A stretch of 45,525 nt of DNA from a virus. The notes beneath the pieces were generated by a model. That model made no database searches, had not been told where the DNA came from, and worked only from the letters and a program-made list of their open reading frames with translations. The stretch is from positions 1 through 45,525 of IMG/VR virus record IMGVR_UViG_3300020473_000049; one strand, given 5' to 3'. Below are positions 1,798-36,494 of this stretch, in pieces. The position numbers and the translations under genes are program-made. Position 1 is the first letter of the stretch. Each line of letters begins with the position of its first letter.

Positions 1798-2775
1798 ATG
1801 GCTACATTGGCTGAAATAAGAGCGAAGTTAAAATCCCAAGAACCTAATCGCTCAGGTTCACAAACAGGCGGAGACAACGCCATCTACCCACACTGGAACA
1901 TATCAGAAGGCTCAGAAGCAGTTGTTAGATTCTTACCAGATAAGGATCAAGGCAATACATTTTTCTGGACTGAAAGAAATATGATCAAACTACCTTTCGC
2001 AGGTGTTAAAGGTCAAACTGATTCAAGACCAGTTACAGTACAAGTTCCTTGTATGGAAATGTATGGAAAAACTTGTCCAGTTCTAACAGAAGTTAGACCA
2101 TGGTTTAAAGACAAAAGCATGGAAGATATGGGAAGAAAATATTGGAAAAAGAAAAGTTATATTTTCCAAGGTTTTGTTGTCAACAATCCGTTATCTGAAG
2201 ACACAACACCAGAGAATCCAGTTAGAAGATTTATTATTGGACCTCAAATCTTTAACATTATCAGAAGTGCGTTACTTGATCCAGAGATGGAAGAGTTACC
2301 AACTGACTTTGTAAAAGGTGTTGATTTTAGAATTAACAAGACAACTAAAGGCGGTTATGCTGATTATTCTACATCAAAATGGTCTAGAAGAGAACGTGCT
2401 CTAGACGAAGCAGAAAGATCTGCAATTGATAAGTTTGGTTTACATAACTTAGGTGACTTTAGACCAAAAGAACCAACTGAAGCAGAAGTTAAAATAATCA
2501 AAGAATTATTTGAAAAATCTGTAGACGGTGAGGCTTATGATCTTGAAAAATATGGACAATACTTTAGACCTACAGGAAGTTTTGCAAGTCAAGTATCTGT
2601 ACCAAAAGCAGATAGACCTGCTCCAGTGGAAAAGACTGCTGATCCGGTAAATGCTGAAGTTAAAACTGAAGCACAACCAGTACCAGCGGCTCAACCAGCA
2701 CAACAACCAGCAGGTGATAGTGCCAAGAGAGCAGAAGATATCTTAAAACTTATAAGATCAAGACAAGCGAAGTAA
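1798..2775 (+). CDS. 32: gp32-like single-stranded DNA-binding protein
   Basis: 325 residues, close to T4 gp32 (301). It coats ssDNA during phage replication and recombination and coordinates UvsX, UvsY, primase and helicase loading. The N-terminal basic segment (residues 1-20) matches the cooperativity domain. The core carries conserved motifs (VVRFLPDKD, FFWTERNMIKLPFAG) and a Cys pair C85-x7-C93 in the zinc-binding region; a third Cys, present in T4, is absent from the whole protein. The C-terminus (about 270-310) is a Pro/Ala/Gln/Glu-rich tail, as expected for the partner-binding region, but ends in a basic helix. A strong AGGAGG fixes the start. uvsX and uvsY follow, as suits a recombination block. 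Confidence 0.93.
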   Translation: MATLAEIRAKLKSQEPNRSGSQTGGDNAIYPHWNISEGSEAVVRFLPDKDQGNTFFWTERNMIKLPFAGVKGQTDSRPVTVQVPCMEMYGKTCPVLTEVRPWFKDKSMEDMGRKYWKKKSYIFQGFVVNNPLSEDTTPENPVRRFIIGPQIFNIIRSALLDPEMEELPTDFVKGVDFRINKTTKGGYADYSTSKWSRRERALDEAERSAIDKFGLHNLGDFRPKEPTEAEVKIIKELFEKSVDGEAYDLEKYGQYFRPTGSFASQVSVPKADRPAPVEKTADPVNAEVKTEAQPVPAAQPAQQPAGDSAKRAEDILKLIRSRQAK

Positions 2776-2945: not shown

Positions 2946-4004
2946 ATGACAAAACCATTTGACGCAACAAAATTTAGAAAGAGTATTACGAAATCAATTT
3001 CAGGATTAGGTATTGGATTTAGCGATCCTACAGACTGGATTTCAACAGGAAATTACGCATTAAACTATTTGATGACTAGTAATTTTAAAAAAGGAATACC
3101 GTTAGGCAAAGTAACTGTACTTGCAGGAGAATCAGGAGCAGGTAAATCTTACATAGCATCAGGTAACATTATTAAAAATGCACAGGATCAAGGTATATTT
3201 GTTATACTAATTGATACAGAGAACGCATTAGACGAACAATGGCTACAAGCATTAAAAGTAGACACATCAGAAGATAAACTTATGAAATTAAGTATGTCTA
3301 TGGTTGATGACGTAGCAAAAACTGTTTCAGAGTTTATGAAAGGTTACAAAGAGCAACACGCAGACAACAAAGAAGGTGCACCTAAAGTACTATTTGTTAT
3401 AGACAGTTTGGGTATGTTACTAACACCAACAGATGTTAATCAGTTTGAAGCAGGTGAGATGAAGGGTGATTTAGGTAGAAAACCTAAAGCATTAACGGCA
3501 CTTGTAAGAAACTGTGTTAATATGTTTGGAAGTTGGAACGTAGGACTTATAGCAACCAATCACACATACGCATCACAAGATATGTTTGATCCAGATGATA
3601 AGATATCAGGAGGACAAGGATTTATATATGCATCAAGTATTGTAGTTGCAATGAAAAAATTAAAACTAAAAGAAGATGAAAAAGGCAACAAAATATCTGA
3701 CGTAAGAGGTATAAGAGCGGCTTGTAAAGTTATGAAAACGAGATATGCTAAACCGTTTGAGGGTGTACAAGTTAAAATTCCATACGATACTGGTATGGAT
3801 CCTTATAGTGGACTAGTTGATTTATTTGAGAAAAAAGGAATACTAGTACAAACAGGAAATAGATTAAAATACGTCGATCCTACAGGAAAAGAACACATTG
3901 AATTCAGAAAAGCCTGGGTTGGAGCCAAATTGGATATGCTAATGGATGATTTTGATAAATTATCTAGTGCATCATCACAAGATGATCCACCCGAGGCAGA
4001 ATAA
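2946..4004 (+). CDS. uvsX: UvsX RecA-like recombinase
   Basis: 352 residues. This ATP-dependent strand-exchange protein forms filaments on ssDNA for recombination-dependent replication and repair. Walker A GESGAGKS lies at 61-68, Walker B VLFVIDSLG at 148-156, and a Gly-rich loop (SGGQGFIYASS) near 220 is a DNA-binding L2-type loop. The length fits T4 UvsX (391) and the shorter marine phage versions. It is the main gene behind the consensus promoter, and its stop overlaps the next ATG by one base (TAATG), so translational coupling is likely. There is no clear Shine-Dalgarno sequence. Confidence 0.95.
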   Translation: MTKPFDATKFRKSITKSISGLGIGFSDPTDWISTGNYALNYLMTSNFKKGIPLGKVTVLAGESGAGKSYIASGNIIKNAQDQGIFVILIDTENALDEQWLQALKVDTSEDKLMKLSMSMVDDVAKTVSEFMKGYKEQHADNKEGAPKVLFVIDSLGMLLTPTDVNQFEAGEMKGDLGRKPKALTALVRNCVNMFGSWNVGLIATNHTYASQDMFDPDDKISGGQGFIYASSIVVAMKKLKLKEDEKGNKISDVRGIRAACKVMKTRYAKPFEGVQVKIPYDTGMDPYSGLVDLFEKKGILVQTGNRLKYVDPTGKEHIEFRKAWVGAKLDMLMDDFDKLSSASSQDDPPEAE

Positions 4005-20504: not shown

Positions 20505-21124
20505 CAGATAAAAAGTTTTTAGTACAGTCTTTTAATAAAGTTAAAAGTGTAACAACACTTGATCAATTCTACGAACAATGTAAAAGTTCAATGGATCGTC
20601 ATTGGGAATCTACATATGAGTCTAATAAAGATATTCTTCAAGATAAAAAATGTGTTGACGTTGGGATTTGGTTAGGAATTTCTAATGCTTATGCTTTAGA
20701 AAAATTTAATTTACAAACAACACACGGTATTGATCCAAACAAAGATTTTATAAAAGTGTGTGCCAAACTACTACCAAACACAAAATTTTATAGTACAATA
20801 GACGAAGTAGATGAAACTATTGATACAGATGTTCTTTTTATGCTTGGATTGATTCCGTTTTTTGGAACACAATGGAAAGAACATTTAAATCGTATTTTGC
20901 AAAAAATTAATGCAAACTACATAATTCTTCGTCATCAAACTTATGATGAGACAGAAGGTAGTTTTACAAACCCAAAAGAATATAACGTATTAGGACTAAC
21001 TGATTACAGCACGTCTGCTGATGTAGATGATGTGGTTTGGTTTTTGCAAAACCAAGAATGGCTGTTAACAAAAAAACAAGAAAACGTTTATACATTTAAA
21101 AAATATGGACAGAAAACATTATAA
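20501..21124 (+). CDS. class I SAM-dependent methyltransferase
   Basis: 207 residues. KCVDVGIWLGISNAYALE (about 50-67) is a SAM motif I, THGIDPNKDFI is motif II, and DVLFMLGLIPFFG falls at motif IV. No substrate domain is recognisable. In this island a sugar O-methyltransferase is the simplest reading. It overlaps its neighbours by 4 and 20 nt. Confidence 0.7.
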   Translation: MTDKKFLVQSFNKVKSVTTLDQFYEQCKSSMDRHWESTYESNKDILQDKKCVDVGIWLGISNAYALEKFNLQTTHGIDPNKDFIKVCAKLLPNTKFYSTIDEVDETIDTDVLFMLGLIPFFGTQWKEHLNRILQKINANYIILRHQTYDETEGSFTNPKEYNVLGLTDYSTSADVDDVVWFLQNQEWLLTKKQENVYTFKKYGQKTL

Positions 21125-21884
21125 TCAAGTTAATTGGCGTAGAAAAGCAAGACACAAAGAGCCAATTGAATGGCAACCTTATACGGGTGAAACTATTACT
21201 GTTAATACAATTCTTCGTAAAGGTAAAAAAATTATAGAAAAAGGATACTACGAAGACCGAGTTAAAGCAGTTCCTAGAGGTAATGCTTATATTATAGGAA
21301 ACGGTCCTTCGCGTAAAGATTTTGATTTAACTACGTTAAAAGCAACAGGACAAACCTATGGTTGTAATGCTTTATATCGAGATTTTATTCCAGATTATAT
21401 TTTTAGTATTGATGCACAGGTAACAAATACAATGGTTAAAGACAAAGTATATGAAAAATGTTTTCACTATGCTCCGTCACTTGAAGTTAATCGACACCCT
21501 AAAGGTGGGCCGCCTGTGTTACATTTAATTCCAGACAATCCATATTCCATAAGTGGCAACCAAGCAATTTGGACTGCCTGTGTACACGGACACAAAAATT
21601 TATATCTAATAGGGTTTGACTTTAGAGACTATGGCAAAAATCAACTTAATAACATATACCAAGACACTGAACATTATGGTCCTAGGCATGGTGATACAAT
21701 ATTTGATAATTGGTTAAAATGGTATAGGGATCATCTTAAGCAAAGACCTTATTGTAATTTTACAATAGTCCACGATAATCCGCCTGAATACTTACACAAC
21801 GTACAAACAGGATATGATGTTGGAAATAGTTTTTTAATGACTTATAAAGAGTTTAACGATAAAGTCTTAAACCAACCTGAGTAA
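21105..21884 (+). CDS. Maf/DUF115-like glycosyltransferase-type protein
   Basis: 259 residues. AYIIGNGPSRKDFDL (about 61-75), TYGCNALYRDFIPDYIFSIDAQ and SGNQAIWTACVHGHKNLYLIGFDF match the GxGPS / D-x-D pattern of the MAF_flag10 (DUF115) fold, whose characterised members transfer nonulosonic acids to flagellin. Here it might attach a sugar to a phage or host surface protein. It is the last gene of the rightward arm and converges by 32 nt with the SprT-like gene. Confidence 0.6.
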   Translation: MDRKHYNQVNWRRKARHKEPIEWQPYTGETITVNTILRKGKKIIEKGYYEDRVKAVPRGNAYIIGNGPSRKDFDLTTLKATGQTYGCNALYRDFIPDYIFSIDAQVTNTMVKDKVYEKCFHYAPSLEVNRHPKGGPPVLHLIPDNPYSISGNQAIWTACVHGHKNLYLIGFDFRDYGKNQLNNIYQDTEHYGPRHGDTIFDNWLKWYRDHLKQRPYCNFTIVHDNPPEYLHNVQTGYDVGNSFLMTYKEFNDKVLNQPE

Positions 21885-22320
21885 ACTTATCTCTAAAAGA
21901 ATAAAATTTTTCGTTATGGTTAGAATATGGGTCTTTCATGACTTGCATTTGATATAAATGTACCATTTCGTGTGCTAATGTTTCAATAAAGTCTTTCCAT
22001 TTTGGAAATTTACAATGTAATTCAATTCTAAAGAATACTTCTGTTTTATAGAAGGGAATAATTCTTTGATTGAACGTACCTTTTCTACAATGTCTATTGT
22101 CCCAATCAGCAACACATCTGCCCCAGTCGTGATGTAGTTTCTTAATTTGTATTTCGCAACCACTTAATCTATTGTTGAATAGCAACTGATTTAATCTTCT
22201 ATACCAGTGTGCCGCAACTAACGGAGTGGGTTTATATGCAGTCACTCCTTCTTTAACAGTTAGAGTTCTCTTAAACTGTTTTTTTAGTGTTTTTCTTTGA
22301 CTTTTTACACGTTTTTTCAT
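21853..22320 (-). CDS. SprT-like zinc metalloprotease-domain protein
   Basis: 155 residues. HEMVHLYQ gives the HExxH zinc site (H117, E118, H121) and SNHNEKFYSF supplies the third His (H135), the SprT/Spartan layout. A basic N-terminus (KKRVKSQRKTLKKQFKR) suits DNA or RNA binding. Related cellular proteins cleave DNA-protein crosslinks; a phage version might do so or process phage proteins. It is divergent from the replication operon at 22371, and its end overlaps the glycan island. Confidence 0.8.
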   Translation of the reverse strand: MKKRVKSQRKTLKKQFKRTLTVKEGVTAYKPTPLVAAHWYRRLNQLLFNNRLSGCEIQIKKLHHDWGRCVADWDNRHCRKGTFNQRIIPFYKTEVFFRIELHCKFPKWKDFIETLAHEMVHLYQMQVMKDPYSNHNEKFYSFRDKFTQVGLRLYR

Positions 22321-22370: not shown

Positions 22371-23717
22371 ATGAGCGAAATGCATACAGAAAACCCAAAA
22401 ACTATTAACGAAGCACTTAAAATATTAGCATATAATGATTATTTTTGGCACCATGGCCCAAAAACGCCAAATACACTGATTAAGCCTCATCACAAAGATT
22501 TTGAAACTGTAAAATCTCTAGCGGAGGCTCAGTATGCTTGGACTGAAAAACAGGCCAAATTAGCACTGGTAATTCTCAAAAGATACCTAACAAAGTTTCA
22601 AAAACATGGTATGGATATTAAAAGTTTATTAGATAGTCCAAAATATGAAGAGCCTTTTAGGGTAATAAGTTTTGTAAAAAGCATAGAAAAATATATTGAC
22701 GACACAGACGAAGAACCAAAAATAGAACTACGTTTTCCTTACAATAAAAAAATTGTTACGTTAATTAGACATCTAAAAGATAAAAAAGGATTACCGGGTG
22801 GATATGCAAAATACGAAGGTGAATCTAAAGTGTGGACGTTTAAACAAACTGATGTTACAACATATTATCTAACTTTAATTGCAATTAGATACGATTTTAA
22901 ATTTGTTGATCAAACATTACTTGATGATTACTACACAGTAAGAAAAGAAATTGAAGGCTACAAACAACCTAAAGCAAGACTTATTGGAGACCAGATTGTA
23001 ATTGATAATGCATCTGAATCATTAGACGAGTATTGGAATAACAATTTAAAAGATAAAAAAATATTATTACAAGTTGATAGTTTAAAAAACTTTGGTATTG
23101 ATCCTAGAAATATTAAAGTTAAGGCCTGGTCAAAACTAGGTGGCAAAATTGCTCACGGAAGTTATCATAAACTATGGATTGACCGAAACGAATACAGCAG
23201 AGATGATGTACTTGCAGGACTATCAGAACTAGATTGTTTTCCTATTGTTATGCCTGTAAGTGGCGATCCTAATTCAAAAGAAGATGCAGATGAATGGTCA
23301 CAATGGTTAAAAACATTTGAACGCCATGGTATAGAAAACAAAAATATGTCTTTTGGTTTTGATATTAAAGAACCAAAAAAACCAACAGAAGAACACTGCG
23401 AATACAACGATAATATTGTAGGTAAAATGGAAGAATCACAATTCCAAATATTATATGAAGTTCATCAATTGAGTAAACAATTCAAATATATTGACAAAGA
23501 AACAAAAGTAATATTTGTAAGAAATAGAATACCAAGAGCATTAATAAAATCAAAAATAAAACCAAAAGCATCACTAATTGCTATAGGCGGCGGTTATTAC
23601 ACTGCTGGAACAGACAACCTAAAAAGATTTCTTGATTCTTTACCTAAAACGTTGTATTATAATGATCATAGGCCATCAAGTTGGGAATGGCATGATAACA
23701 TTATAATAAAACTATGA
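22371..23717 (+). CDS. HARP-like phage protein preceding uvsW, function unknown
   Basis: 448 residues with no helicase motifs. Two regions (about 118-178: ELRFPYNKKIVTLIRHL, then GYAKYEGESKVWTFKQ) recall HARP-type repeats that in SMARCAL1-like proteins help anneal DNA: a beta strand, a helix and a conserved Trp. It ends 4 nt inside uvsW, so the two are translated together, and it may give UvsW its substrate specificity. This role is an inference; otherwise the protein is unrecognised. Confidence 0.6.
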   Translation: MSEMHTENPKTINEALKILAYNDYFWHHGPKTPNTLIKPHHKDFETVKSLAEAQYAWTEKQAKLALVILKRYLTKFQKHGMDIKSLLDSPKYEEPFRVISFVKSIEKYIDDTDEEPKIELRFPYNKKIVTLIRHLKDKKGLPGGYAKYEGESKVWTFKQTDVTTYYLTLIAIRYDFKFVDQTLLDDYYTVRKEIEGYKQPKARLIGDQIVIDNASESLDEYWNNNLKDKKILLQVDSLKNFGIDPRNIKVKAWSKLGGKIAHGSYHKLWIDRNEYSRDDVLAGLSELDCFPIVMPVSGDPNSKEDADEWSQWLKTFERHGIENKNMSFGFDIKEPKKPTEEHCEYNDNIVGKMEESQFQILYEVHQLSKQFKYIDKETKVIFVRNRIPRALIKSKIKPKASLIAIGGGYYTAGTDNLKRFLDSLPKTLYYNDHRPSSWEWHDNIIIKL

Positions 23718-25183
23718 GTTCGTGTAAATTAGTAATTAAAGACGAAGTAAACGTAAAATTTGAGAATCTAGATCTTAAATGGAGACAACGTTTACACAAT
23801 AAATTCAAATACCAAGTTCCATATGCATTTCATTTACCCTCTGTTAAGTTAGGCAGATGGGATGGTAAAATTGCATTTTTTGGTTTAGGTGGTACAACAT
23901 ATTTGAGTCTTGTTGAACAAATACTTCCTATACTTGAAGAAGCAGGAGTATATGTTGACTTTGAGGATCAAAGAACTAAACACGATTTTCAATTTAATGC
24001 AATAAACAAAGATTATTTGTCTAATATACAATGGCCAGAGAATCATCCATGTGCTGGACAAAATATAGAATTAAGAGACTATCAAGTGGAAACTATAAAC
24101 AAGTTTATAGAAAACCCACAATGTATACAAGAGATCGCCACTGGTGCAGGTAAGACCATTATTACTGCGGCACTGTGCCAGTTGGTTGAACCTTATGGAC
24201 GTACAATAACAATAGTTCCAAACAAAAGTTTAGTTACACAAACAGAAGAAGACTTTCTTGCTTGTAATTTAGATACAGGTGTTTATTTTGGAGATAGAAA
24301 AGAAGTAGGAAGATATAACACAATAGCAACTTGGCAATCTTTAAATGTATTAGAAAAAAGATCAAAAGATCAACACAGCACTGAGTTTAAAGAATTTTGC
24401 GAAGGTATTAATACTGTAATAATAGACGAAGTACATATGGCAAAAGCAGATGTGCTTAAAAGATTATTAACAGGACCATTTGCACACTGCGGTATACGTT
24501 GGGGATTAACAGGCACAGTACCTAAAGCAGAATTTGAATTTATGGGTATTAAAGTTTCTATTGGTGAAGTTATAAACAAACTTCCTGCTAAAGAATTACA
24601 AGACAAGGGTGTACTTGCACAATGCCATGTAAATATTTTACAAACACAAGACCACCCAATGTTCAAAAACTACCAAGAAGAATTAAAATGGCTAACTACG
24701 GATAGCAACAGGATGACCTGGATTGCACAAACTATAAAAGATATTTCTTCATCAGGAAACACACTAATTTTAGTAGACAGAATATCCGCGGGAGAAATAC
24801 TACAAAAAAAATTAAAAGATTCTGTGTTTATATCAGGATCAACTAAAAATACAGAAAGGAAAGAACACTACGATGAAGTGTCTACAACACAAAACAAAAT
24901 CATTATTGCGACTTATGGGGTCGCATCTGTTGGTATTAATATTCCTAGGATATTCAATCTTGTTCTTATTGAACCTGGCAAGTCTTTCGTAAGAGTTATA
25001 CAGAGCATAGGACGAGGTATTCGTAAAGCAGAAGATAAAGACAATGTGCAGATTTGGGATATTACCAGCAGTTGCAAGTTTGCAAAAAGACACTTAACAC
25101 AAAGAAAAAAGTTTTACAAAGAGGCAAATTATCCGTATAATATAGAAAAGATAGATTATGAAAATCCTTACACTGGAAAATAG
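23714..25183 (+). CDS. uvsW: UvsW-like SF2 DNA helicase
   Basis: 489 residues, close to T4 UvsW (503). An N-terminal beta-rich DNA-binding domain (1-110) is followed by Walker A ATGAGKT (142-148), DEVH box (238-241), GLTGT motif III, and the C-terminal VIQSIGRGIRK motif VI. UvsW unwinds R-loops and branched intermediates and helps the switch to recombination-dependent replication. The next ORF begins 26 nt before its stop. Confidence 0.94.
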   Translation: MSSCKLVIKDEVNVKFENLDLKWRQRLHNKFKYQVPYAFHLPSVKLGRWDGKIAFFGLGGTTYLSLVEQILPILEEAGVYVDFEDQRTKHDFQFNAINKDYLSNIQWPENHPCAGQNIELRDYQVETINKFIENPQCIQEIATGAGKTIITAALCQLVEPYGRTITIVPNKSLVTQTEEDFLACNLDTGVYFGDRKEVGRYNTIATWQSLNVLEKRSKDQHSTEFKEFCEGINTVIIDEVHMAKADVLKRLLTGPFAHCGIRWGLTGTVPKAEFEFMGIKVSIGEVINKLPAKELQDKGVLAQCHVNILQTQDHPMFKNYQEELKWLTTDSNRMTWIAQTIKDISSSGNTLILVDRISAGEILQKKLKDSVFISGSTKNTERKEHYDEVSTTQNKIIIATYGVASVGINIPRIFNLVLIEPGKSFVRVIQSIGRGIRKAEDKDNVQIWDITSSCKFAKRHLTQRKKFYKEANYPYNIEKIDYENPYTGK

Positions 25184-25661
25184 AACATACACATTAGAAA
25201 AAATACCTGAATATGTTGATGAACAATTAAGATTTGCTGTAATGGATAATTCAGATCCTGAGAATCCAGATTTCTTTTACATACCTTTAATATTTTTAGA
25301 AAGTTTTAATGCTCCGGCGGCAGTGTTACAAATAGGAAAATATAAAATAAAAATGCCTTTGGATTGGAAAATGTTAATAGGTGAGCAAGGACAACCAGAA
25401 ATGCACGTGCTACCAATCACAAGTTTAAATGATAGAGGGTTTGATGCATTCACATTTAATCCATTATCAAGTGCTAAACCAGATTTCTTTCCTATTGATG
25501 TTGTAGATATTTACACTGAGGTTAAATGGTATTTTCCTAAAATTAAATCAGGACAACTACTTGCTGTTCCTTTAACAAACGGACCAACACCTATTTGTGC
25601 TTATTTTGTAAAAGATATTTCAAGACAATGTGAAATGGTTGATTATGGCTCGGTCTGGTAG
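25158..25661 (+). CDS. uvsW-linked phage protein, unknown function
   Basis: 167 residues, mostly beta-strand in appearance (FFYIPLIFLESFNAPAAVLQIGKYKIKMPL) with no enzyme motif. It overlaps uvsW by 26 nt and the next gene by 17 nt, so it is part of the replication operon. Position suggests an accessory or regulatory role for late transcription or replication, but I do not recognise the family. Confidence 0.7.
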   Translation: MKILTLENRTYTLEKIPEYVDEQLRFAVMDNSDPENPDFFYIPLIFLESFNAPAAVLQIGKYKIKMPLDWKMLIGEQGQPEMHVLPITSLNDRGFDAFTFNPLSSAKPDFFPIDVVDIYTEVKWYFPKIKSGQLLAVPLTNGPTPICAYFVKDISRQCEMVDYGSVW

Positions 25662-25905
25662 AAAGCACGTCAGCATTGAAGCACCGGTAATGAAAATACA
25701 AGGTGCATATGTTTGGATGGATAGATATTGGCCGGTGGATTTGTTTACGTGGATGAGAAAAGAAAAAATGCAATTTACAGAATTAAAAATGAGAAATAAT
25801 AAACTTACACTCTATTTTCCAACAGCAAAAGAGTGTACAATGTTTGGATTAAAATATGACAGAGAAAAGCAAAAGGAAATTTTTCGAACTTCGGAATGGT
25901 CTTAA
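25645..25905 (+). CDS. small basic phage protein, unknown function
   Basis: 86 residues from ATG 25645. Basic N-terminus MARSGRKHVSIE, several Trp (VWMDRYWPVDLFTWMRK) and a strand-rich C-terminus (KLTLYFPTAKECTMFGLKYD). No known fold identified. It overlaps both neighbours and belongs to the same transcript. Confidence 0.65.
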   Translation: MARSGRKHVSIEAPVMKIQGAYVWMDRYWPVDLFTWMRKEKMQFTELKMRNNKLTLYFPTAKECTMFGLKYDREKQKEIFRTSEWS

Positions 25906-26314
25906 AGCAGTAGACTACAGAAACAAAGACTACTACGATAGAATAGACGATCATGAAAAGTCGTTGTATTCTCCTTTTATGTTGATGAGATATGCTTCAA
26001 GTGTTTCATCTAAAGATCCTTTTTATGTTGAACACTATGTAGAAATGGTAAACGAATGTGTTAATAAAAATTTGTTTGCATTATCTAGCAAACACAAAAA
26101 ATTATGCTGGGTATTAACTTCTATGTGTGGAGCATTACAGCAACAATTTCATCCATGGATAAAACCTATGAAACGTGTTTCAAATAAAAGTTTACAACAA
26201 CTAGAACAAATTTATCCAACATGGAATACTGAGGACTTAGAAGCATTAGACAAAGTAATTACAGACAGAGAACTTGAAGAGTTGCTGGAGGCACATGGCA
26301 TCGAATCTAAATAA
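25856..26314 (+). CDS. 62: gp62-like sliding-clamp loader subunit (probable)
   Basis: 152 residues. Its layout matches marine T4-like gp62: an N-terminal helix FFELRNGLKAVDYRNKDY, SPFMLMRYASS, a central LCWVLTSM...HPWIK (basic helix then a Pro-Trp turn), and a C-terminal IYPTWNTEDLEALDKVIT helix pair. gp62 joins gp44 to load gp45 clamp on primed DNA. gp44 is not in the window, so the assignment rests on sequence pattern and replication context. Confidence 0.6.
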   Translation: MTEKSKRKFFELRNGLKAVDYRNKDYYDRIDDHEKSLYSPFMLMRYASSVSSKDPFYVEHYVEMVNECVNKNLFALSSKHKKLCWVLTSMCGALQQQFHPWIKPMKRVSNKSLQQLEQIYPTWNTEDLEALDKVITDRELEELLEAHGIESK

Positions 26315-26981
26315 ATGTACCTATTGCGATAAAGAATTTGCACGAGAAAGAACTTTACAAGTGCATCTTTGCGAACCTAAAAGAAGATATCTACAAAAAA
26401 ATGAGAAGTGGGTGCAGAATGCTTTTATGGTGTTTCAAAGATTTTATCAAATACATCAAAACAATATGAAAGAAAAAACATATGAAGATTTTTGTAGTTC
26501 AGCATACTACAATGCGTTTGTTAAATTTGGTAGATTTATGATGCATATAAATCCACTGTATCCAGAAAAATATATAGACTATGTAATATTATCAAAAATT
26601 AAATTAGATCATTGGGCAAGAGATAATTTATACGAAGCATATCTAATTGATACATTAAAAGTAGAACCGGTTGAGGCGGCACTGCAAAGAAGTATTGCAA
26701 CAATGATGGACTGGGCAGGAGAACAAAATGCACAATGGAGTGACTACTTTAGATTAGTAAACACTAATAGAGCAGTACAACATATACAACAAGGAAAGAT
26801 ATCTCCGTGGATAGTTCTTGGTTGCAACGCAGGAAAAAAAATGTTAAAATCGTTTAGTGACGAACAATTACAATTAACTGCTAGATATATTAGTCCAGAG
26901 TTTTGGAATTCAAAGTTTAAAAGTTATCCAGCAGATTTATTATTTGTACAAGAAACAGCCAAGGAGGCAAAAATTGAGTAG
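26295..26981 (+). CDS. C2HC zinc-finger phage protein
   Basis: 228 residues from ATG 26295. C8-x2-C11-x12-H24-x-C26 forms a zinc finger at the N-terminus, followed by a long helical region with a DNA- or protein-binding look (WVQNAFMVFQRFYQIHQ; FGRFMMHINPLYPEKYIDYV). No homologue is recognised with certainty; comparison by eye with T4 gp59 does not fit well. Its place between a clamp-loader-like gene and a DnaE-like gene suggests a replication function. Confidence 0.65.
   Translation: MASNLNKCTYCDKEFARERTLQVHLCEPKRRYLQKNEKWVQNAFMVFQRFYQIHQNNMKEKTYEDFCSSAYYNAFVKFGRFMMHINPLYPEKYIDYVILSKIKLDHWARDNLYEAYLIDTLKVEPVEAALQRSIATMMDWAGEQNAQWSDYFRLVNTNRAVQHIQQGKISPWIVLGCNAGKKMLKSFSDEQLQLTARYISPEFWNSKFKSYPADLLFVQETAKEAKIE
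26961..26967 (+). promoter_or_regulatory. Shine-Dalgarno AAGGAGG that selects a TTG start
   Basis: AAGGAGG at 26961-26967 lies 6 nt before TTG 26974. There is no in-frame ATG at the right distance, so the ribosome-binding site fixes a non-ATG start. Confidence 0.75.
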
Positions 26982-27216
26982 AGTTAAAATTGATATTGAT
27001 GACGAATTAGATTTTGATTTGGAAGAAGGAGACATGATATTACACATTAAACACACTGGAGAAATTGGTAAAGTGTGTATGCCAGATATGAATTTAAAAG
27101 TAAAAGAAAGTATTGGGTATCATAAAATGTTACAGTGTTTAGAAATTTTAAAGCCTGGTACAAGAAAAGAATTTATTAAGTATCAAGAAAAAAAAACTAA
27201 AAGGACGTTAAACTAA
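26974..27216 (+). CDS. small acidic protein with TTG start
   Basis: 80 residues from TTG 26974, chosen because AAGGAGG sits at the right spacing. The N-terminus is strongly acidic (KIDIDDELDFDLEEGD) and the C-terminus basic (KYQEKKTKRTLN). The stop shares one base with the DnaE-like start (TAATG). No domain is recognised; an ssDNA- or protein-interaction role is only a guess from charge and neighbours. Confidence 0.65.
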   Translation: MSRVKIDIDDELDFDLEEGDMILHIKHTGEIGKVCMPDMNLKVKESIGYHKMLQCLEILKPGTRKEFIKYQEKKTKRTLN

Positions 27217-27806
27217 TGCCTGATGTAGATATAGATTTTTTTGATAGAGACGGTGTATTAAAATTATTTAAACATACTCCTGCATCAATTATCAATGAGA
27301 AAGCAAACGAAAAACATAAAACTGGTGTTTACTTTCATGCAGTACCAGAACATCCAGTAACAGGACACGCAACACTTGATTATAAAAAAGCAGAAGACAG
27401 AGGCTATTTTAAAATTGATTGTTTAAATGTTAATCTTTATAAAAATGTAAAATCAGAACAGGAACTTGTAGAACTAATGATACAAGAACCTAATTGGGAT
27501 ATGCTTAAAGATCAAACAATAGTTGATGAACTATTTCATTTAAATGGTCATTTCAGTATTGTTTCAAAACTACAACCAAAAACTATAGAACAACTTGCGG
27601 CTGTATTAGCAATTATACGTCCAGCAAAAAGATATCTTGTAAATGCACCGTGGGATGATATTTTAAAAGAGGTTTGGATTAGGCCAGCAGATGGCAGTTA
27701 TTTCTTTAAAAAATCACACGCAGTTGCTTATGCACAGGCAATCGTAGTTCAGATGAATTTAATTGCTCGTGATAAATATAGTTTTAGTGCAACACAGGAA
27801 ACGTAA
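27216..27806 (+). CDS. miniature DnaE-like (PolIII alpha fragment) protein
   Basis: 196 residues, far shorter than bacterial DnaE (about 1,160), yet holding its landmarks in order: PDVDIDFFDRDGVLK (the PDxDxDF catalytic-palm motif), GYFKIDCLNVNLY (cf. G-x-x-K-x-D-x-L-G-L), LQPKTIEQLAAVLAIIRPAK (cf. P-x-x-x-x-DL-x-x-x-x-A-x-x-RPG), and FFKKSHAVAYAQAIVVQM (cf. FNKSHA-x-AYA). PHP, most of the fingers and the tau-binding tail are absent. Whether it polymerises or regulates host PolIII is unknown. Confidence 0.7.
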   Translation: MPDVDIDFFDRDGVLKLFKHTPASIINEKANEKHKTGVYFHAVPEHPVTGHATLDYKKAEDRGYFKIDCLNVNLYKNVKSEQELVELMIQEPNWDMLKDQTIVDELFHLNGHFSIVSKLQPKTIEQLAAVLAIIRPAKRYLVNAPWDDILKEVWIRPADGSYFFKKSHAVAYAQAIVVQMNLIARDKYSFSATQET

Positions 27807-27939
27807 ACTCACTAAAAAATCAAAGAACAAGAAATCCAATCATCGCTCAAAGTATAACAGTTATCAGCCGGATAGTCCTTTAACATTACACTATCTTACA
27901 ACAGGTGCTATACTTCCTGAAAAAAAGAAAACTAGATAG
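27787..27939 (+). CDS. possible small lysine/arginine-rich ORF
   Basis: 50 residues from GTG 27787 in a frame other than the upstream gene. N-terminal half very basic (KRKLTKKSKNKK), then a Tyr/Thr/Pro-rich half. No Shine-Dalgarno sequence or late octamer precedes it, and it overlaps the 3' ends of both neighbours. It fills an otherwise empty 125-nt gap. May be a real nucleic-acid-binding peptide or chance. Confidence 0.3.
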   Translation: MQHRKRKLTKKSKNKKSNHRSKYNSYQPDSPLTLHYLTTGAILPEKKKTR

Positions 27940-28306
27940 GTTTTCTAACTAATTGGATAGTTCTTCTTTTTATTCGTTTCTTTGAAATTTCAGAAAGTTT
28001 TACAGTAGGGCCTTCTACTATTTGAATATCTTTTGAATTTAATGTTACTAGAGTTGTACGGAAGTAACGAAAATCTCCTTTAAGGAATATATTAATTGGT
28101 AGTTTTCTATTAGACTCATACCACCAAATTTCACCACATTTCAAAAATCTCATTTTATCCTGCGGACTCATTAATCTACCGTAGTCATAGAAACTTATTA
28201 CATTATTGTCTTGGTTTTGTACAATACCAACATACTCTAAGTCGCCCTTACGTATTAGGCTTAAAAATGGGAATTTATCTCTTAATGTCTTAAAAATTTC
28301 GTTCAT
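27932..28306 (-). CDS. conserved-type phage protein, unknown function
   Basis: 124 residues: FPFLSLIRKGDLEYVGIVQNQDN, CGEIWWYESNRKLPINIFLKGDF and KKRIKRRTIQLVRKPI at the C-terminus. Pattern and neighbourhood suggest a widely conserved T4-like marine phage protein of unknown role. CAGAGG immediately precedes the ATG. It runs against the operons on both sides, with divergent promoters in the 33-bp gap to 28339. Confidence 0.75.
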   Translation of the reverse strand: MNEIFKTLRDKFPFLSLIRKGDLEYVGIVQNQDNNVISFYDYGRLMSPQDKMRFLKCGEIWWYESNRKLPINIFLKGDFRYFRTTLVTLNSKDIQIVEGPTVKLSEISKKRIKRRTIQLVRKPI

Positions 28307-28338: not shown

Positions 28339-29145
28339 ATGCAAACAATACAAAGGTATTTACTCACAAACTCGGTAATCGTTTACCAAAATGGTTATCA
28401 TGGAAGGAACTCAAAAGTGTACGATAGACGTCTACAGGTGTATAGAGGTGTGTATAACCCAATTACGTTTACCTTTAAAAACGAGGATCAAAAGAAACAG
28501 GACATAGTTGGTAAGACTTATACGTTCAATATTGTAGATACTGAGAGCAAAAAAGCAGTAGTTACAAGAACTTTAAAAATACTAGATGACGGATCAACTA
28601 TAGACAGCAAAGGAACTGCTAGTGTAGAAATCACAGAGGGCGATTTACAACCTTTAGATGCAAAATTTTATGAGTATTCTATACAAGAAGTTCTTACAGA
28701 TGGTAGTACTGTGGTAACTTATGCAGATACAAGTTATGTCAGTGCTGGTACTATTGAAGTGCTAGATGGTGCTTATCCACAGTTTAATGCAAGTACCTCA
28801 GTTACACAATTTACAGGTACTGGTGGACCATTAGCAAAAACATCTGGTTCAATTAATGCTAAACCAGGTACTAACAATAACAAAGCATTACACACGATTG
28901 CTGTATACACTCAAGATTTTGCAGGAGATTTTAAAGTGCAAGGCACAATGGCTTCAAGTCCTGCTGATGCAGATTATTTTGATATTACCTTAGATGGTGA
29001 AGCATCAAGTACTGTATCGTATATTATATCTACAAGCCAAGTTTACTATTATAACTTTACCGGTGTTTACCATTATATAAGAATTAGTTGGGATAATGCA
29101 ACTGATAACACTGGTAAGATTGACAAAATCCTTTATAGACAGTAA
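28339..29145 (+). CDS. virion structural protein, fibre/baseplate-like
   Basis: 268 residues, beta-rich with many Thr, Ser and Gly. The N-terminal part (ITFTFKNEDQKKQDIVGKTYTFNIVD) is like the Ig-type N-terminal domain of phage baseplate/fibre proteins such as BppU. The C-terminal half (KPGTNNNKALHTIAVYTQDFAGDFKVQGTMA ... YHYIRISWDNA) resembles a jelly-roll receptor- or carbohydrate-binding domain. No signal peptide. Late-type octamers upstream support the structural call. Confidence 0.65.
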   Translation: MQTIQRYLLTNSVIVYQNGYHGRNSKVYDRRLQVYRGVYNPITFTFKNEDQKKQDIVGKTYTFNIVDTESKKAVVTRTLKILDDGSTIDSKGTASVEITEGDLQPLDAKFYEYSIQEVLTDGSTVVTYADTSYVSAGTIEVLDGAYPQFNASTSVTQFTGTGGPLAKTSGSINAKPGTNNNKALHTIAVYTQDFAGDFKVQGTMASSPADADYFDITLDGEASSTVSYIISTSQVYYYNFTGVYHYIRISWDNATDNTGKIDKILYRQ

Positions 29146-29155: not shown

Positions 29156-30223
29156 ATGAACCTGATCCAGAATACAATTCTGACGTCCATACCTGCGAAC
29201 AAAAAGAAAACACCATCTGGGTGGATTTCTTTTAATGCACCTTGTTGCATTCATAACGGAGAGACTCAAGACAAAAAGAAACGTGGTGGTATAATGAATA
29301 GTGCTGACGGCACAATATCTTATCATTGTTTTAACTGTGGATACAAGGCAAGTTATATAGTTGGCAGACGTTTAACTCAACGTATGAGAACTTTTATGAG
29401 TTACATTGGCATACCAAGTGATACAATTCAAAAGTTAGCCATAGAAGCAATACGTCTTGAAGAATCAGGTGGTACTACATTTCAAAAGAAAAAATTTATA
29501 GGTTTTAACAAAACAAAATTGCCAATTAATTCACGTAAGTTAGAATGGTGGCTAGAAAGATTTCCTGATAAAAAAGTTTGGGATGGAGAAAGATATGTTA
29601 ATAAAAGACAATTAACTAATTTACAAAAAGAAAAAATAAATCATTTATTAACTTATTTAGAAGACAGAGGCATTGGTGCTGACTGGTATGACTTTATGTA
29701 TTCATCAGATCCTTTTTTTGATATGCACAATAGAGTTATTATTCCTTTCTTTTGGAAAGGCGAAATAGTTGGATATACAGGAAGAAGATTGCAAGAACAT
29801 TCTTTTAATAATGACAGCGGAATAAAATACTATACTGATGTGCAACCTGGTTACGTTTTTAATATGGACGCACAAGATTGGACAAGAAAATTTGTTATTG
29901 TGACTGAAGGACCATTTGATGCAATTACCGTTTCTGGAGTGAGTGTGTTGGGTTCAGAGGTAAATGATATACAGCGAGAGTTAATTGATGGACTTAATAG
30001 AAAGGTAATTGTAGTGCCGGACAGAGATAAACCAGGTGAAAAATTAGTAGATCAAGCAATGGAGTTTGGTTGGTCTGTTGCTTTTCCAGAATGGGATAAT
30101 AAGGTTGAAGATGTCGCGGATGCTGTGTTAAAATACGGTAGACTGTTTACTATACAATCAATATTAAAAACAACTGAAAGTAGTAAACTAAAAATAGATT
30201 TAAAGAGAAAGATGTATGGCTGA
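29156..30223 (+). CDS. 61: DNA primase, gp61-like
   Basis: 355 residues (T4 gp61: 342). N-terminal zinc site C30, C31, H33, C58, C61; TOPRIM domain with VTEGPFDAI (about 260) and VVPDRDKPG (about 285), giving the catalytic Glu and Asp. It makes RNA primers for lagging-strand synthesis with gp41. The helicase gene starts 8 nt before its stop, so the two are coupled. Confidence 0.92.
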   Translation: MNLIQNTILTSIPANKKKTPSGWISFNAPCCIHNGETQDKKKRGGIMNSADGTISYHCFNCGYKASYIVGRRLTQRMRTFMSYIGIPSDTIQKLAIEAIRLEESGGTTFQKKKFIGFNKTKLPINSRKLEWWLERFPDKKVWDGERYVNKRQLTNLQKEKINHLLTYLEDRGIGADWYDFMYSSDPFFDMHNRVIIPFFWKGEIVGYTGRRLQEHSFNNDSGIKYYTDVQPGYVFNMDAQDWTRKFVIVTEGPFDAITVSGVSVLGSEVNDIQRELIDGLNRKVIVVPDRDKPGEKLVDQAMEFGWSVAFPEWDNKVEDVADAVLKYGRLFTIQSILKTTESSKLKIDLKRKMYG

Positions 30224-31649
30224 TTATAACTTTGATGTACAAAAATTATATTTAGAAATGTTACTAGCAGATGCAGAATCTTTTGCTAGAGCACAAAATA
30301 TTTTTACTCCAGCAAGTTTTGATAGAAAGTTGCAACCTATTGCAAAATTTATTAAAGACTACATGGAAGAATACAAAGTTATGCCTGACGTTGAACAGGT
30401 TAATGCTAAACACGATATTAAATTAAAATCAGCAAAAGATTTAGATCCAAGTCATTTCAATTGGTTACTAGATGAATTTGAAACGTTTTCCAGACATAAA
30501 GCACTTGAACGTGCAATTTTACAGTCAGCAGACTTACTAGAAAAAGGAGACTATGCTCCAGTAGAGGACATGGTTAAACAAGCGGTAAGTGTTGGACTGA
30601 CAAAAGATCTTGGTACAGACTACTTCGAAGATCCAAAAGGTAGATTAGAGAAACTTAAAAACTCTAATGGACAAGTCAGCACAGGTTGGCCAAACATTGA
30701 TAAGAAACTGTTCGGTGGTTTTAACCGAGGAGAACTAAACATTTTTGCAGGTGGATCAGGCGCAGGTAAAAGTTTATTCTTACAGAATCTTGCAGTGAAT
30801 TGGTCAACTGCTGGTTTGAATACTGTGTACATCTCATTTGAATTAAGTGAAGAACTTACTTCTATGAGATTGGATGCAATGATGACTAACATACCAACAC
30901 GTAAAGTATTTCCAGAAATAGATAATGTTGAAATGAAAGTTAAGATGTTAGGAAAAAAATCCGGATTATTGTTTATCAAATACTTGCCAAGTGGTAGTAC
31001 AATATTAGACGTAAGAACATATGTTAAAGAACTTGAACTAAAAACTAAAAAGAAAATTGATTGTATACTGATTGATTATTTAGATTTAATGATGCCAAAA
31101 TCTAAAAGAATATCTCCAGCAGACTTGTTTATTAAAGACAAATATGTATCAGAAGAACTTAGAAACTATGCAGTAGAATCACAAATGTTATTAGCAACTG
31201 CATCACAATTGAACAGAGCAAGTGTTGAAGAAATAGAATTTGATCACTCTCACATAGCAGGCGGACTTTCTAAAATACAAACAGCAGATAACGTAATTGG
31301 TATCTTTACAAGTAGAGCAATGAAGGAACGTGGTAGATATCAAATACAGTTTATGAAAACTAGAAGTTCAAGTGGTGTTGGGCAAAAAGTTGATTTAGAA
31401 TTCGATGTTGACAGTTTAAGAATTAGAGATTTGGCAGAAGAAGAAAACTATAATCAACATAGTAAAACAAAAAATTTAGTATACGATTCGTTAAAACAAA
31501 AATCAAAAGTAAGCACAGATAAAACTGATGCACAACCAAAAGTACCTGATCCTACAAAAGGTGATGACATTGGTAAAGTTAAAGCAACTGTTGAAGGTGG
31601 CAAACTAAGACAACTGCTTAACGAACTTCACTCAGACGAAGAGCAATAA
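30216..31649 (+). CDS. 41: replicative DNA helicase, gp41 (DnaB-like)
   Basis: 477 residues (T4 gp41: 475). N-terminal helical domain (1-130), Walker A GGSGAGKS (179-186), Walker B CILIDYLDLM (about 285-294), ATASQLNR motif H3 and RGRYQIQFMKTRSS motif H4. It unwinds 5'-3' on the lagging strand with the gp61 primase. The C-terminal 60 residues are a charged tail. It ends before a GC-rich repeat/hairpin block. Confidence 0.94.
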   Translation: MADYNFDVQKLYLEMLLADAESFARAQNIFTPASFDRKLQPIAKFIKDYMEEYKVMPDVEQVNAKHDIKLKSAKDLDPSHFNWLLDEFETFSRHKALERAILQSADLLEKGDYAPVEDMVKQAVSVGLTKDLGTDYFEDPKGRLEKLKNSNGQVSTGWPNIDKKLFGGFNRGELNIFAGGSGAGKSLFLQNLAVNWSTAGLNTVYISFELSEELTSMRLDAMMTNIPTRKVFPEIDNVEMKVKMLGKKSGLLFIKYLPSGSTILDVRTYVKELELKTKKKIDCILIDYLDLMMPKSKRISPADLFIKDKYVSEELRNYAVESQMLLATASQLNRASVEEIEFDHSHIAGGLSKIQTADNVIGIFTSRAMKERGRYQIQFMKTRSSSGVGQKVDLEFDVDSLRIRDLAEEENYNQHSKTKNLVYDSLKQKSKVSTDKTDAQPKVPDPTKGDDIGKVKATVEGGKLRQLLNELHSDEEQ

Positions 31650-32177: not shown

Positions 32178-32257
32178 TCCGGATTGTAACACTATTTATT
32201 AGGAATTACAACCTATATGTGTATGGATTGGTAAAGTTTTATTGTTGACAAAACCAC

Positions 32258-32265
32258 TTTAAATA
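32258..32265 (+). promoter_or_regulatory. late-type octamer TTTAAATA before radical SAM gene
   Basis: TTTAAATA, then 6 nt, then the ATG at 32272. No Shine-Dalgarno sequence. Part of the recurrent pattern. Confidence 0.45.
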
Positions 32266-32271
32266 GCAGTA

Positions 32272-33354
32272 ATGATTAATGAAAGACTGTTTGAACACTA
32301 CAAAATAGACACTGCGAAGGACCTGAAAATACCAAAGCGATGTCCACGGCCGTTTGACACACTGCTGATAGACAAAAAGGGTTCGTGCTATGCTTGTGAA
32401 TGCACATCGTGGTTGCCACAGAGCATAGGTAATTTACAAATCAAAACACTGCATCAAATTATTAATCGTAATGATATGCGTAAACATCTGCAGAGTTCTA
32501 TCACAGATGGCTCATATCGTTACTGCAACGAGCATCAGTGTTCTTACATAAAAGCCGGTGCTGTATTGCATGGCCAGCCGGAACGCATACAGCATCTAAG
32601 ACTTGCCATAGATGACTCTTGTAATTTAAGATGTCCTAGTTGCAGAAAACAAATGTTGTTTCTCAGCAACTCAGAAGATCCAGAAGATAAAAATAGAGTT
32701 GCTGAATACGAAAGAAGAAAGAAACTCGCTGACAAAATAAACGATTGGTTGGAATCATATTACTATCCATTACAGGTACACATAGGATCAGATGGTGATC
32801 CTTTTGCTTCGCACATATACAGATACTTCATGGAACATACACCCAAACGTGATAATATAAAATATTCAATACTAACAAATGCATTGATGTTTGAATCTTT
32901 TCATACTCGGGTGCCACACGTGATAAAAAATTTAGAAGAACTAGGAGTCAGTATTGATGGTGCATCAAAAGAAACATATGAAAAATTACGACTGGGAGGT
33001 AATTGGGAAAAAATTAATCGTAACTTACAATGCATTTCTGAACTAAAACAAAAACACGACTTTACATTTATTTTACACTTTGTAGTACAAAAAGAGAACT
33101 ATCATGAAATGGAAAAAATTATTGACCTTGCTGAGAAATACGGTGCTGATAATGTTTGGTTAAACAAAATTGAAGATTGGGGAGTAATGAAAAACTTTGA
33201 TGAACAAAATATTTTTACTCCTACACATCCTGATAATATTGATTATAACTTATATCTAAATCAAGTTATTCAACGTATTTGGAAACGTAACGATAGATTT
33301 ATTGAATGTCCTACTTTAATAAGTGAAGAGGTTCGTTATAGAAACAAAAACTAA
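32272..33354 (+). CDS. radical SAM enzyme with N-terminal SPASM-like domain
   Basis: 360 residues. DSCNLRCPSCRK holds the C117-x3-C121-x2-C124 that binds the SAM-cleaving 4Fe-4S cluster; a SIDGASKETYEKLR segment is typical of the SPASM/twitch subfamily barrel. Before it, residues 24-90 (CPRPFDTLLIDKKG, CYACECTSWLPQSIGN, YCNEHQC) look like a SPASM auxiliary-cluster domain, placed N-terminally instead of C-terminally. It likely modifies a peptide, nucleotide or sugar. It converges with the 2OG gene by 44 nt. Confidence 0.82.
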   Translation: MINERLFEHYKIDTAKDLKIPKRCPRPFDTLLIDKKGSCYACECTSWLPQSIGNLQIKTLHQIINRNDMRKHLQSSITDGSYRYCNEHQCSYIKAGAVLHGQPERIQHLRLAIDDSCNLRCPSCRKQMLFLSNSEDPEDKNRVAEYERRKKLADKINDWLESYYYPLQVHIGSDGDPFASHIYRYFMEHTPKRDNIKYSILTNALMFESFHTRVPHVIKNLEELGVSIDGASKETYEKLRLGGNWEKINRNLQCISELKQKHDFTFILHFVVQKENYHEMEKIIDLAEKYGADNVWLNKIEDWGVMKNFDEQNIFTPTHPDNIDYNLYLNQVIQRIWKRNDRFIECPTLISEEVRYRNKN

Positions 33355-33793
33355 ATTGTATTCTAGGATACTTGGCATCCTTGCCTATTTCAACTGTGTG
33401 CATTATATCAGATCGTAACACAATTGGTTTAGTACATTCAACTCTGTCTATTTCGTTTTTATTCTCATCAAACCAAACGTTGTAAGTGTCTTTGGTGTTT
33501 AACACAGGTATATTAATTTTAGCAACCACCGGGGGTTCATCCACGTGAGGTACTGTTTGTATTTCTTCGTTCCACACAGTAAAACTCATATCTCTCACTT
33601 TTAAACCTAAACTATCAAACCAATTTTTAAGTTCTAAGTTGGGTATTGCAAAGTAATTTTTAATTTGTTCTCGTGTGCAAAATGTCCAAAATTCTTTGGG
33701 TTGATTATTTGCCGTAATACCTTTATAATACCCATATAGACTATCTGAGATTTTTTGTAATTTAGGACAATCCAAAATAAAATAAGACTTCAT
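33311..33793 (-). CDS. 2OG-Fe(II)-oxygenase-like protein (third copy)
   Basis: 160 residues. VPHVDEPP gives H83-x-D85, IMHTVEIG gives H132, and YPRIQFSF an Arg (R144) at the 2-oxoglutarate position, the complete facial-triad set in a compact beta-helix, aspartyl-hydroxylase-like. It starts behind TTTAAATA (6 nt). Its 3' end overlaps the radical SAM gene, so transcripts collide. Confidence 0.7.
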   Translation of the reverse strand: MKSYFILDCPKLQKISDSLYGYYKGITANNQPKEFWTFCTREQIKNYFAIPNLELKNWFDSLGLKVRDMSFTVWNEEIQTVPHVDEPPVVAKINIPVLNTKDTYNVWFDENKNEIDRVECTKPIVLRSDIMHTVEIGKDAKYPRIQFSFCFYNEPLHLLK

Positions 33794-33799
33794 ATAACA

Positions 33800-33809
33800 T
33801 ATTTAAATA
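33800..33809. promoter_or_regulatory. palindromic late-type site TATTTAAATA (bidirectional)
   Basis: Reads TTTAAATA on both strands (minus 33800-33807, plus 33802-33809). On the minus strand it is 6 nt from the 2OG gene's ATG. On the plus strand it lies 35 nt before the sulfotransferase-like gene. Confidence 0.45.
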
Positions 33810-33844
33810 CCAATGCTTATGGAAATTACAATATTGGACACAAA

Positions 33845-34387
33845 ATGATACAAGTTATTCAAATAAAAGAAGACCTATTTGTTTACCCAATTTTTAAAAA
33901 TGGCAGTTCTAGTCTAAAGCAGTATGCTAAAAGAAACAAATGTAAAATGCTGTTTAACGAGCAAGTAAGACGTTGTGAAACAATTACAACTTATATCAGA
34001 GAACCAAAGGAAAGATTCATTGCTGGTGTGCATTCCTACATAGCATTTGAAAGAAGAAAAGATCCAAATTTGGATTATGACCAAGTTTTAGAACAAATAA
34101 AAACTAAAGGATTAACAAATGAACATTTTGTACAACAGTTTTGGTGGTTAAATGGTTTAGCAAGATATTACAGTGGTAAAATAAAATTTGAGAACTCTAG
34201 GCAACTGCTTGATCTAATACCAGATAGAAAAATTCCGCATTTAGAATTTCCTGAGATAACACCCGAGCAACACGAAAAAATAGGAGAAATAGAATTTAAC
34301 CTAGCACAAGATTATAAAATTTGGGACAACTATATGGATAAAACAATTAACCTAAAGGATTTATTAAATGTACTGTCCAAGACTTAA
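33845..34387 (+). CDS. sulfotransferase-like protein (short)
   Basis: 180 residues. LFVYPIFKNGSSSLKQYA is a PAPS 5'-phosphosulfate-like loop and TYIREPKERFIAGVHSY the 3'-phosphate motif, as in the sulfotransferase at 9635. It lacks a long C-terminal part. It overlaps the radical SAM gene downstream by 20 nt, so the two probably act on one target. Confidence 0.7.
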   Translation: MIQVIQIKEDLFVYPIFKNGSSSLKQYAKRNKCKMLFNEQVRRCETITTYIREPKERFIAGVHSYIAFERRKDPNLDYDQVLEQIKTKGLTNEHFVQQFWWLNGLARYYSGKIKFENSRQLLDLIPDRKIPHLEFPEITPEQHEKIGEIEFNLAQDYKIWDNYMDKTINLKDLLNVLSKT

Positions 34388-36384: not shown

Positions 36385-36389
36385 AATGA

Positions 36390-36397
36390 TATTTAAA
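36390..36397 (-). promoter_or_regulatory. late-type octamer TTTAAATA before GTG gene
   Basis: Minus-strand TTTAAATA, then TCATT, then GTG at 36384. Lies between the gene and tRNA-Glu. Confidence 0.45.
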
Positions 36398-36405
36398 TTG
36401 TCTAA

Positions 36406-36480
36406 TGGTAGTCCCTAGGAGAATTGAACTCCTGTTTGCGGTATGAAAAACCGCTGTCCTAACCACTAGACGAAGGGACC
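36406..36480 (-). tRNA. tRNA-Glu (anticodon UUC), CCA encoded
   Basis: The 75-nt cloverleaf on the minus strand starts GGTCCCT, pairing with AGGGACT (G1-U72). The anticodon stem GCGGT/ACCGC encloses loop TTTTCAT with TTC at 34-36. The T-arm has GTTCAATTC. Discriminator A73 and CCA are encoded. It would boost reading of GAA codons, frequent in this AT-rich phage. Confidence 0.93.
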
Positions 36481-36494
36481 GTTTTAATTATGGT

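What the first reader, a model, noticed from the sequence alone, without database searches (positions are those of the whole stretch)
27216..27806. Miniature DnaE-like protein in a T4-type replication cluster
A 196-residue protein keeps at least four DnaE landmarks in order (PDxDIDF, G-x-x-K-x-D, P-x-x-x-x-x-L-A-x-x-x-x-x-RP, F-x-K-S-H-A-x-A-Y-A) with all the intervening domains removed. T4-like phages use family B polymerase gp43, so a C-family remnant is unexpected. It could be a clamp-, primase- or PolIII-interfering factor, or a new minimal nucleotidyltransferase.
Basis: partly seen in the sequence, partly recalled or inferred. Interest (0 to 1): 0.72.

Follow-up and report, generated by a model that had tools for sequence, protein, structure and literature searches.

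The report
Half of a split phage polymerase
This small viral gene encodes one half of a stripped-down bacterial-type DNA polymerase whose other half is made from a separate, distant gene in related giant phages; the pairing was predicted in 2021 and, as far as I found, has never been tested in the laboratory.

Summary
ORF 27216-27806 (196 aa) is DnaE-related and carries the four landmarks in order. It is the C-terminal half of a known phage-specific split, minimal DNA polymerase III alpha (PHROG 11778), described by Iyer et al. 2021 (PMC7824862) in T4-like "group 2.2" jumbo phages that also encode a family B polymerase. The partner half (PHROG 11127) is encoded 11-224 kb away in all nine reference isolate genomes examined. 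The N-half normally ends 33 residues after the start of its GRGS motif (..EFLK/R stop), and the C-half starts at (M)PDxDIDF. The cut therefore bisects the palm between the nucleotide-binding helix and the catalytic strand. The three predicted catalytic aspartates (D5, D7, D68) are conserved throughout the set aligned, the gene is under purifying selection, and it sits in a conserved uvsW-primase-gp41 cluster. PHP, thumb, clamp-binding and OB regions are absent. Best reading: it pairs non-covalently with the N-half to rebuild a nucleotidyltransferase that does auxiliary DNA synthesis beside the family B polymerase. Pairing and activity are inferred. The window's own marine lineage is known only as fragments of at most 122 kb, and its N-half has not been seen. 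New member of a known, experimentally uncharacterised kind.

The parts
27216..27806 (+). C-half of split mini Pol III alpha (196 aa): DxDxD strand (D3, D5, D7), HKTGVY strand (H34, G37), KxD strand (K66, D68), finger motif (P121...RP135-136, K138), FKKSHAxAYA helix (164-173)
27787..27939 (+). small basic ORF (GTG start, 50 aa) overlapping the 3' end of the C-half in another frame; a like ORF follows the C-half in about 9 of 10 window-clade loci looked at; function unknown
27932..28306 (-). 124-aa convergent gene, PHROG 11637 (unknown function), next to the C-half in 78 of 80 relatives and in all 8 isolate phages compared
28339..29145 (+). putative virion structural protein (phrog_14467), conserved position
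29156..30223 (+). DNA primase (T4 gp61-like)
30216..31649 (+). DnaB-like replicative helicase (T4 gp41-like)
23714..25183 (+). UvsW-like helicase
25158..25661 (+). 167-aa conserved cluster gene, PHROG 11279, unknown function
25856..26314 (+). 152-aa conserved cluster gene, PHROG 11758, unknown function
26274..26981 (+). 235-aa cluster gene, PHROG 11058, with a possible (sub-threshold) N-terminal C2H2 zinc finger; matched in all 80 relatives
1798..2775 (+). gp32-type single-strand DNA binding protein
2946..4004 (+). UvsX-like recombinase

Best explanation
The 196-aa protein is the C-terminal half of a naturally bisected, minimal C-family polymerase. It supplies the catalytic Asp strand (DxDxD), the second Asp strand (KxD) and a reduced finger region. 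A separately encoded N-terminal half of about 175 aa supplies the GRGS nucleotide-binding helix. The two most likely associate non-covalently to rebuild one pol-beta-type nucleotidyltransferase core without PHP, thumb, clamp-binding or OB domains. It probably performs short, auxiliary DNA synthesis (gap filling, repair or recombination-coupled, or lagging-strand work) next to the phage's family B polymerase and its UvsW, primase and gp41 machinery. Shown by sequence: family, split point, conserved residues, co-occurrence of halves in relatives, synteny. Inferred: physical pairing, catalysis, the specific role, and the presence of the N-half in this phage.
For: Family match and profile and fold matches to Pol III alpha; the N-half profile finds E. 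coli DnaE 286-393 at E 2.6e-4, and its model matches only Pol III alpha above probability 0.25. The N-half match in E. coli DnaE ends at 393 (FLN), just before the PDFDVDF motif. GRGS to C-terminus is 33 residues in 112 of 119 N-halves. All 9 reference isolate phages examined carry one N-half and one C-half, including circular 141.6-kb Slickus01 with the halves 11 kb apart. 87 versus 90 of 50,697 phage records match N and C, with nearly the same genus counts. 8 of 9 long contigs from a second C-half group also carry the N-half, and 9 of 25 N-half contigs the C-half. D68, K66, R135, P136 and K138, none used to select sequences, are invariant in 238 C-halves; pN/pS is 0.12. Family B polymerase is found in all 8 isolates tested. 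The neighbourhood is kept at 35-53% C-half identity.
Against: No N-half was found in the window or in window-clade contigs up to 122 kb. A 359-kb and a 191-kb contig have an N-half but no C-half. Loss of the thumb makes ordinary processive synthesis doubtful. No experimental work on either half was found in the papers searched. A DnaQ-like exonuclease is found in 6 of 8 isolates but not in the window-like marine contigs.
Confidence: 0.68

Rival explanations
1. The two halves do form a nucleotidyltransferase, but not a DNA polymerase: for example a terminal transferase, a primer-making or nucleotide-modifying enzyme that kept the C-family core for another reaction.
For: The thumb, clamp-binding and OB regions are missing, and the phages already encode a full family B polymerase and a primase.
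Against: The template-side finger motif (RP, K138) and KSHAxAY helix are invariant or nearly so, and the gene lies in a replication cluster.
Confidence: 0.14
2. The halves are structural or regulatory replisome parts without catalysis, holding the family B polymerase, helicase or clamp loader together.
For: The C-half is encoded beside primase and gp41 and the N-half often near the clamp loader.
Against: All three catalytic Asp and the GRGS motif are retained across deep divergence (the DxDxD and GRGS motifs were partly used to select sequences, D68 was not).
Confidence: 0.1
3. One reading: a decoy that binds host DnaE, DnaN or DnaQ and interferes with host Pol III.
For: It resembles part of host DnaE.
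Against: The C-terminal part of DnaE beyond the KSHAxAY helix, which holds clamp and tau contacts (own knowledge), is absent; nothing points to host binding; active-site residues would not need to be kept.
Confidence: 0.04
4. In the window's marine lineage the N-half has been lost or replaced, and the C-half works alone or with another protein.
For: No N-half in window-clade contigs reaching about 80-99 kb upstream and 22 kb downstream of the C-half. One such contig carries a separate 563-aa single-chain DnaE.
Against: All long contigs of this lineage are fragments; the closest contig with both halves (G016, C-half 60% identical) has them about 230 kb apart; an abundant marine N-half group of at least 422 loci exists on contigs without a C-half, as expected if the genomes are broken in assembly.
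Confidence: 0.1
5. Decaying remnant of a full-length dnaE.
For: Much shorter than DnaE.
Against: Constant length and ends in hundreds of relatives, pN/pS 0.12, conserved gene order.
Confidence: 0.01

Closest known systems
Phage-specific split minimal DNA polymerase III alpha of group 2.2 jumbo phages (Iyer et al. 2021, PMC7824862), PHROG 11778 (C-half) and PHROG 11127 (N-half)
   Same: Same family, same half, same gene neighbourhood; partner encoded far away; family B polymerase in the same relatives.
   Different: This member belongs to an abundant marine lineage known only from fragments; its N-half and family B polymerase are not on the contigs held.
Bacterial DnaE (E. coli and M. tuberculosis Pol III alpha; 2hnh, 5lew)
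   Same: Collinear DxDxD, KxD, RP and KSHAxAY motifs; fold search returns Pol III alpha first.
   Different: 196 aa against about 1160-1184; no PHP, thumb, clamp-binding, OB or tau-binding region; palm cut into two genes.
563-aa PHP-less single-chain phage DnaE in L041 (PF07733 and PF17657; phrog_405-like)
   Same: C-family core without PHP, next to the same helicase gene in a window-clade contig.
   Different: One chain with intact palm and finger domain; it accompanies the C-half rather than replacing it, and was seen in one of 12 window-clade records tested.
T4 gp43 family B polymerase
   Same: Present in the same phages (relatives).
   Different: Unrelated fold; the C-half has no family B match.

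Membership tests
Split minimal Pol III alpha (PHROG 11778 / Iyer et al. 2021) | Sequence match to the C-half family over its full length | tested here: met
   E 7.7e-65, residues 3-187 on profile 8-195 of 197
Split minimal Pol III alpha (PHROG 11778 / Iyer et al. 2021) | Starts at PDxDIDF, with no GRGS nucleotide-binding half in the same chain | tested here: met
   MPDVDIDF at residues 1-8; no PF07733 match in the window
Split minimal Pol III alpha (PHROG 11778 / Iyer et al. 2021) | Mg-binding Asp residues kept | tested here: met
   D5, D7, D68 invariant; equivalence to E. coli D401, D403, D555 rests on the alignment plus my own knowledge of DnaE numbering
Split minimal Pol III alpha (PHROG 11778 / Iyer et al. 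2021) | Separate distant N-half gene in the same genome | tested here: inconclusive
   Met in 9 of 9 isolate phages; not seen for the window lineage, whose contigs are incomplete
Split minimal Pol III alpha (PHROG 11778 / Iyer et al. 2021) | Accompanied by a family B polymerase | tested here: inconclusive
   Met in 8 of 8 isolates; absent from window-clade fragments G001, G002, G008; the window itself was not searched with PF00136
Split minimal Pol III alpha (PHROG 11778 / Iyer et al. 2021) | Phage-specific | tested here: met
Cellular C-family DNA polymerase (DnaE/PolC) | PHP domain | tested here: not met
   Absent from the 196-aa chain; no Pfam PHP hit
Cellular C-family DNA polymerase (DnaE/PolC) | Complete palm in one chain | tested here: not met
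   GRGS half missing
Cellular C-family DNA polymerase (DnaE/PolC) | Thumb domain | tested here: not met
   About 40 residues where 5lew has 141 between aligned segments
Cellular C-family DNA polymerase (DnaE/PolC) | Beta-clamp-binding, OB and tau-binding C-terminal region | tested here: not met
   Chain ends about 18 residues after the KSHAxAY motif aligned at 5lew 773-788
Cellular C-family DNA polymerase (DnaE/PolC) | DNA synthesis activity | not testable with these tools
   Needs biochemistry

The most novel reading that the evidence does not exclude
A polymerase active site naturally cut in two inside its palm: two unlinked, intein-free proteins of 175-200 aa reconstitute a working DNA polymerase with no thumb, PHP or clamp-binding domain, used routinely alongside a family B polymerase by an abundant marine phage lineage, making it among the smallest C-family polymerases known.
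Probability: 0.4. Interest if true: 0.75.

Novelty: new member of a known kind. Interest (0 to 1): 0.5.

Why it matters
A palm domain split at a fixed point and kept for a long time as two distant genes is a rare arrangement. If active, it would show how little of a C-family polymerase is needed for synthesis, and it would give a tractable model for the suggestion of Iyer et al. that minimal Pol III modules resemble ancestral replication enzymes. The abundance of the gene in marine phage contigs, the fixed split point and the near one-to-one co-occurrence of halves make the prediction directly testable.

Tried and rejected
Single-sequence phmmer against the PDB gave nothing; profiles were needed. 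Pfam alone gives only a sub-threshold finger-domain match. A frame-shift or in-contig N-half was considered and rejected: no PF07733 match in the window or in 10 of the 11 other window-clade contigs tested, and the one hit (G008) is a separate 563-aa DnaE. Linking a marine N-half group to the window lineage failed: G021 shares structural genes with window-clade contig G001 at only 56% median identity against 82% for G002, and none of 18 long N-half contigs has a C-half. A further scan for longer window-clade contigs found none above 122 kb. Trans-splicing of the halves by inteins was considered and rejected because N-halves stop directly after EFLK/R and C-halves start at the motif, with no intein sequence. 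Early tblastn scripts failed because of a naming bug and were redone; one dN/dS script stopped on a division by zero and was redone.

Full report
Observation. The ORF at 27216-27806 encodes 196 aa beginning MPDVDIDF. Homology to DnaE is supported by PHROG 11778 (7.7e-65), the long phage DnaE family phrog_405 (9.3e-6), a profile search of the PDB in which M. tuberculosis DnaE1 is found at E 2.6e-4 with collinear segments, and Foldseek of a confident AF2 model (mean pLDDT 90.6), whose nine best PDB matches are all Pol III alpha and whose tenth is another DNA polymerase entry. Foldseek E-values are modest (best 6.1e-3), probably because a small, rearranged core is compared with chains of over 900 residues; the probability is up to 1.00.

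What it is. The family is already described. Iyer et al. 2021 (PMC7824862) report in group 2.2 jumbo phages a phage-specific minimal Pol III alpha split into an N-terminal NTP-binding and a C-terminal Mg- and template-binding protein, encoded by distant genes, beside a family B polymerase. The CBB genome paper had noted a truncated alpha subunit of 172 aa (PMC5259590); one search shows that gene, CBB gp328, to be the N-half, while the C-half is gp287. The window protein is the C-half.

The partner. A PF07733 search of eight isolate phages found one clear N-half in each, matching only model positions about 16-98. The N-halves end in EFLK/R or close variants, and the C-halves begin at (T/P)DxDID. 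From GRGS to the C-terminus there are 33 residues in 112 of 119 N-halves. The N-half profile aligns to E. coli DnaE 286-393, so the cut falls in the short loop between the nucleotide-binding part and the catalytic strand. In 50,697 phage records 90 match the C-half and 87 the N-half, with nearly the same genus composition. Circular 141.6-kb Alishewanella phage Slickus01 also has both, 11 kb apart, so the pair is not confined to genomes above 200 kb.

Conservation. In 238 C-halves D3, D5, D7, H34, G37, K66, D68, R135, P136, K138, H168 and Y172 do not vary. In 192 N-halves GRGS, W81, R108, E112 and H161 do not vary. Sequences were collected with patterns containing DxDxD (and a K-x-H motif) or GRGS, so those columns are partly fixed by selection; D68, K66, R135, P136 and K138 are not. 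Within the window clade median pN/pS is 0.12 with near-saturated synonymous change. The gene order uvsW, small genes, PHROG 11058 protein, C-half, convergent PHROG 11637 gene, structural protein, primase, gp41 is kept in the window clade and, with small changes, in isolates of alpha- and gammaproteobacteria; XacN1 is rearranged.

Window lineage. Its longest known contig is 122 kb. No N-half or family B polymerase lies on the longer contigs tested. G016 (328 kb, C-half 60% identical) has an N-half, a C-half and a family B polymerase. A separate marine N-half group of at least 422 loci sits on contigs that lack a C-half. Genome fragmentation explains both patterns best, but this was not proved. 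That the group is marine is inferred from the sample series and from the relatives, not read from metadata.

How it probably works. The N-half supplies the GRGS helix that in pol-beta-type enzymes holds the incoming nucleotide (established knowledge of the fold); the C-half supplies the two metal-binding Asp strands and a reduced finger region. AF2 places D5/D7 on strand 4-8 and D68 on strand 67-71. Distances could not be measured because coordinates are not returned, and a complex could not be predicted. Without a thumb or clamp-binding region, ordinary processive replication is unlikely; short auxiliary synthesis next to the family B polymerase is the most economical reading. Host interference and gene decay are poorly supported.

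Scores. Family placement as the C-half of the split Pol III alpha is near certain (about 0.95, my estimate). Physical pairing with an N-half and catalysis are likely (about 0.7). The specific role in auxiliary DNA synthesis is the weakest step (about 0.45). The novelty lies in the lineage, the exact split-point statistics and the co-occurrence counts, not in the kind.

Noticed in passing
window 27787-27939 (+): A 50-aa lysine-rich ORF (GTG start) overlaps the 3' end of the C-half in another frame; a similar ORF with a (Y/F)QP(D/N)xPLT core follows the C-half in about 9 of 10 window-clade loci checked.
   Followed up: partly
L041:10451-12142: A 563-aa single-chain DnaE without PHP follows the gp41 helicase gene in one window-clade contig, so that phage carries a C-half and a second compact C-family polymerase.
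   Followed up: partly
window 27932-28306 (-): The convergent PHROG 11637 gene stays next to the C-half in nearly all relatives, including isolates, although it is on the opposite strand; function unknown.
   Followed up: partly
window 22371-23717 (+): A 448-aa protein just upstream of uvsW has no match in Pfam or PHROGs although it is found in 61 of 80 window-clade loci.
   Followed up: no
window about 5000-21900 and 32200-45500: By reading only: many genes look like surface-sugar or small-molecule biosynthesis (asparagine synthase-like 16985-18769, sugar epimerase-like 7986-8990 and 42899-43846, aminotransferase-like 44726-45523, radical SAM-like 32272-33354), plus a ClpP-type protease at 42271-42873.
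   Followed up: no
G014 (locus L126) and G020 (locus L114): Contigs of 359 kb and 191 kb with an N-half but no detectable C-half; incomplete genomes or real exceptions.
   Followed up: partly
G001:C1:89095-89427: A 111-aa gene that lies near the N-half in related marine contigs sits about 10 kb upstream of the C-half in window-clade contig G001.
   Followed up: partly
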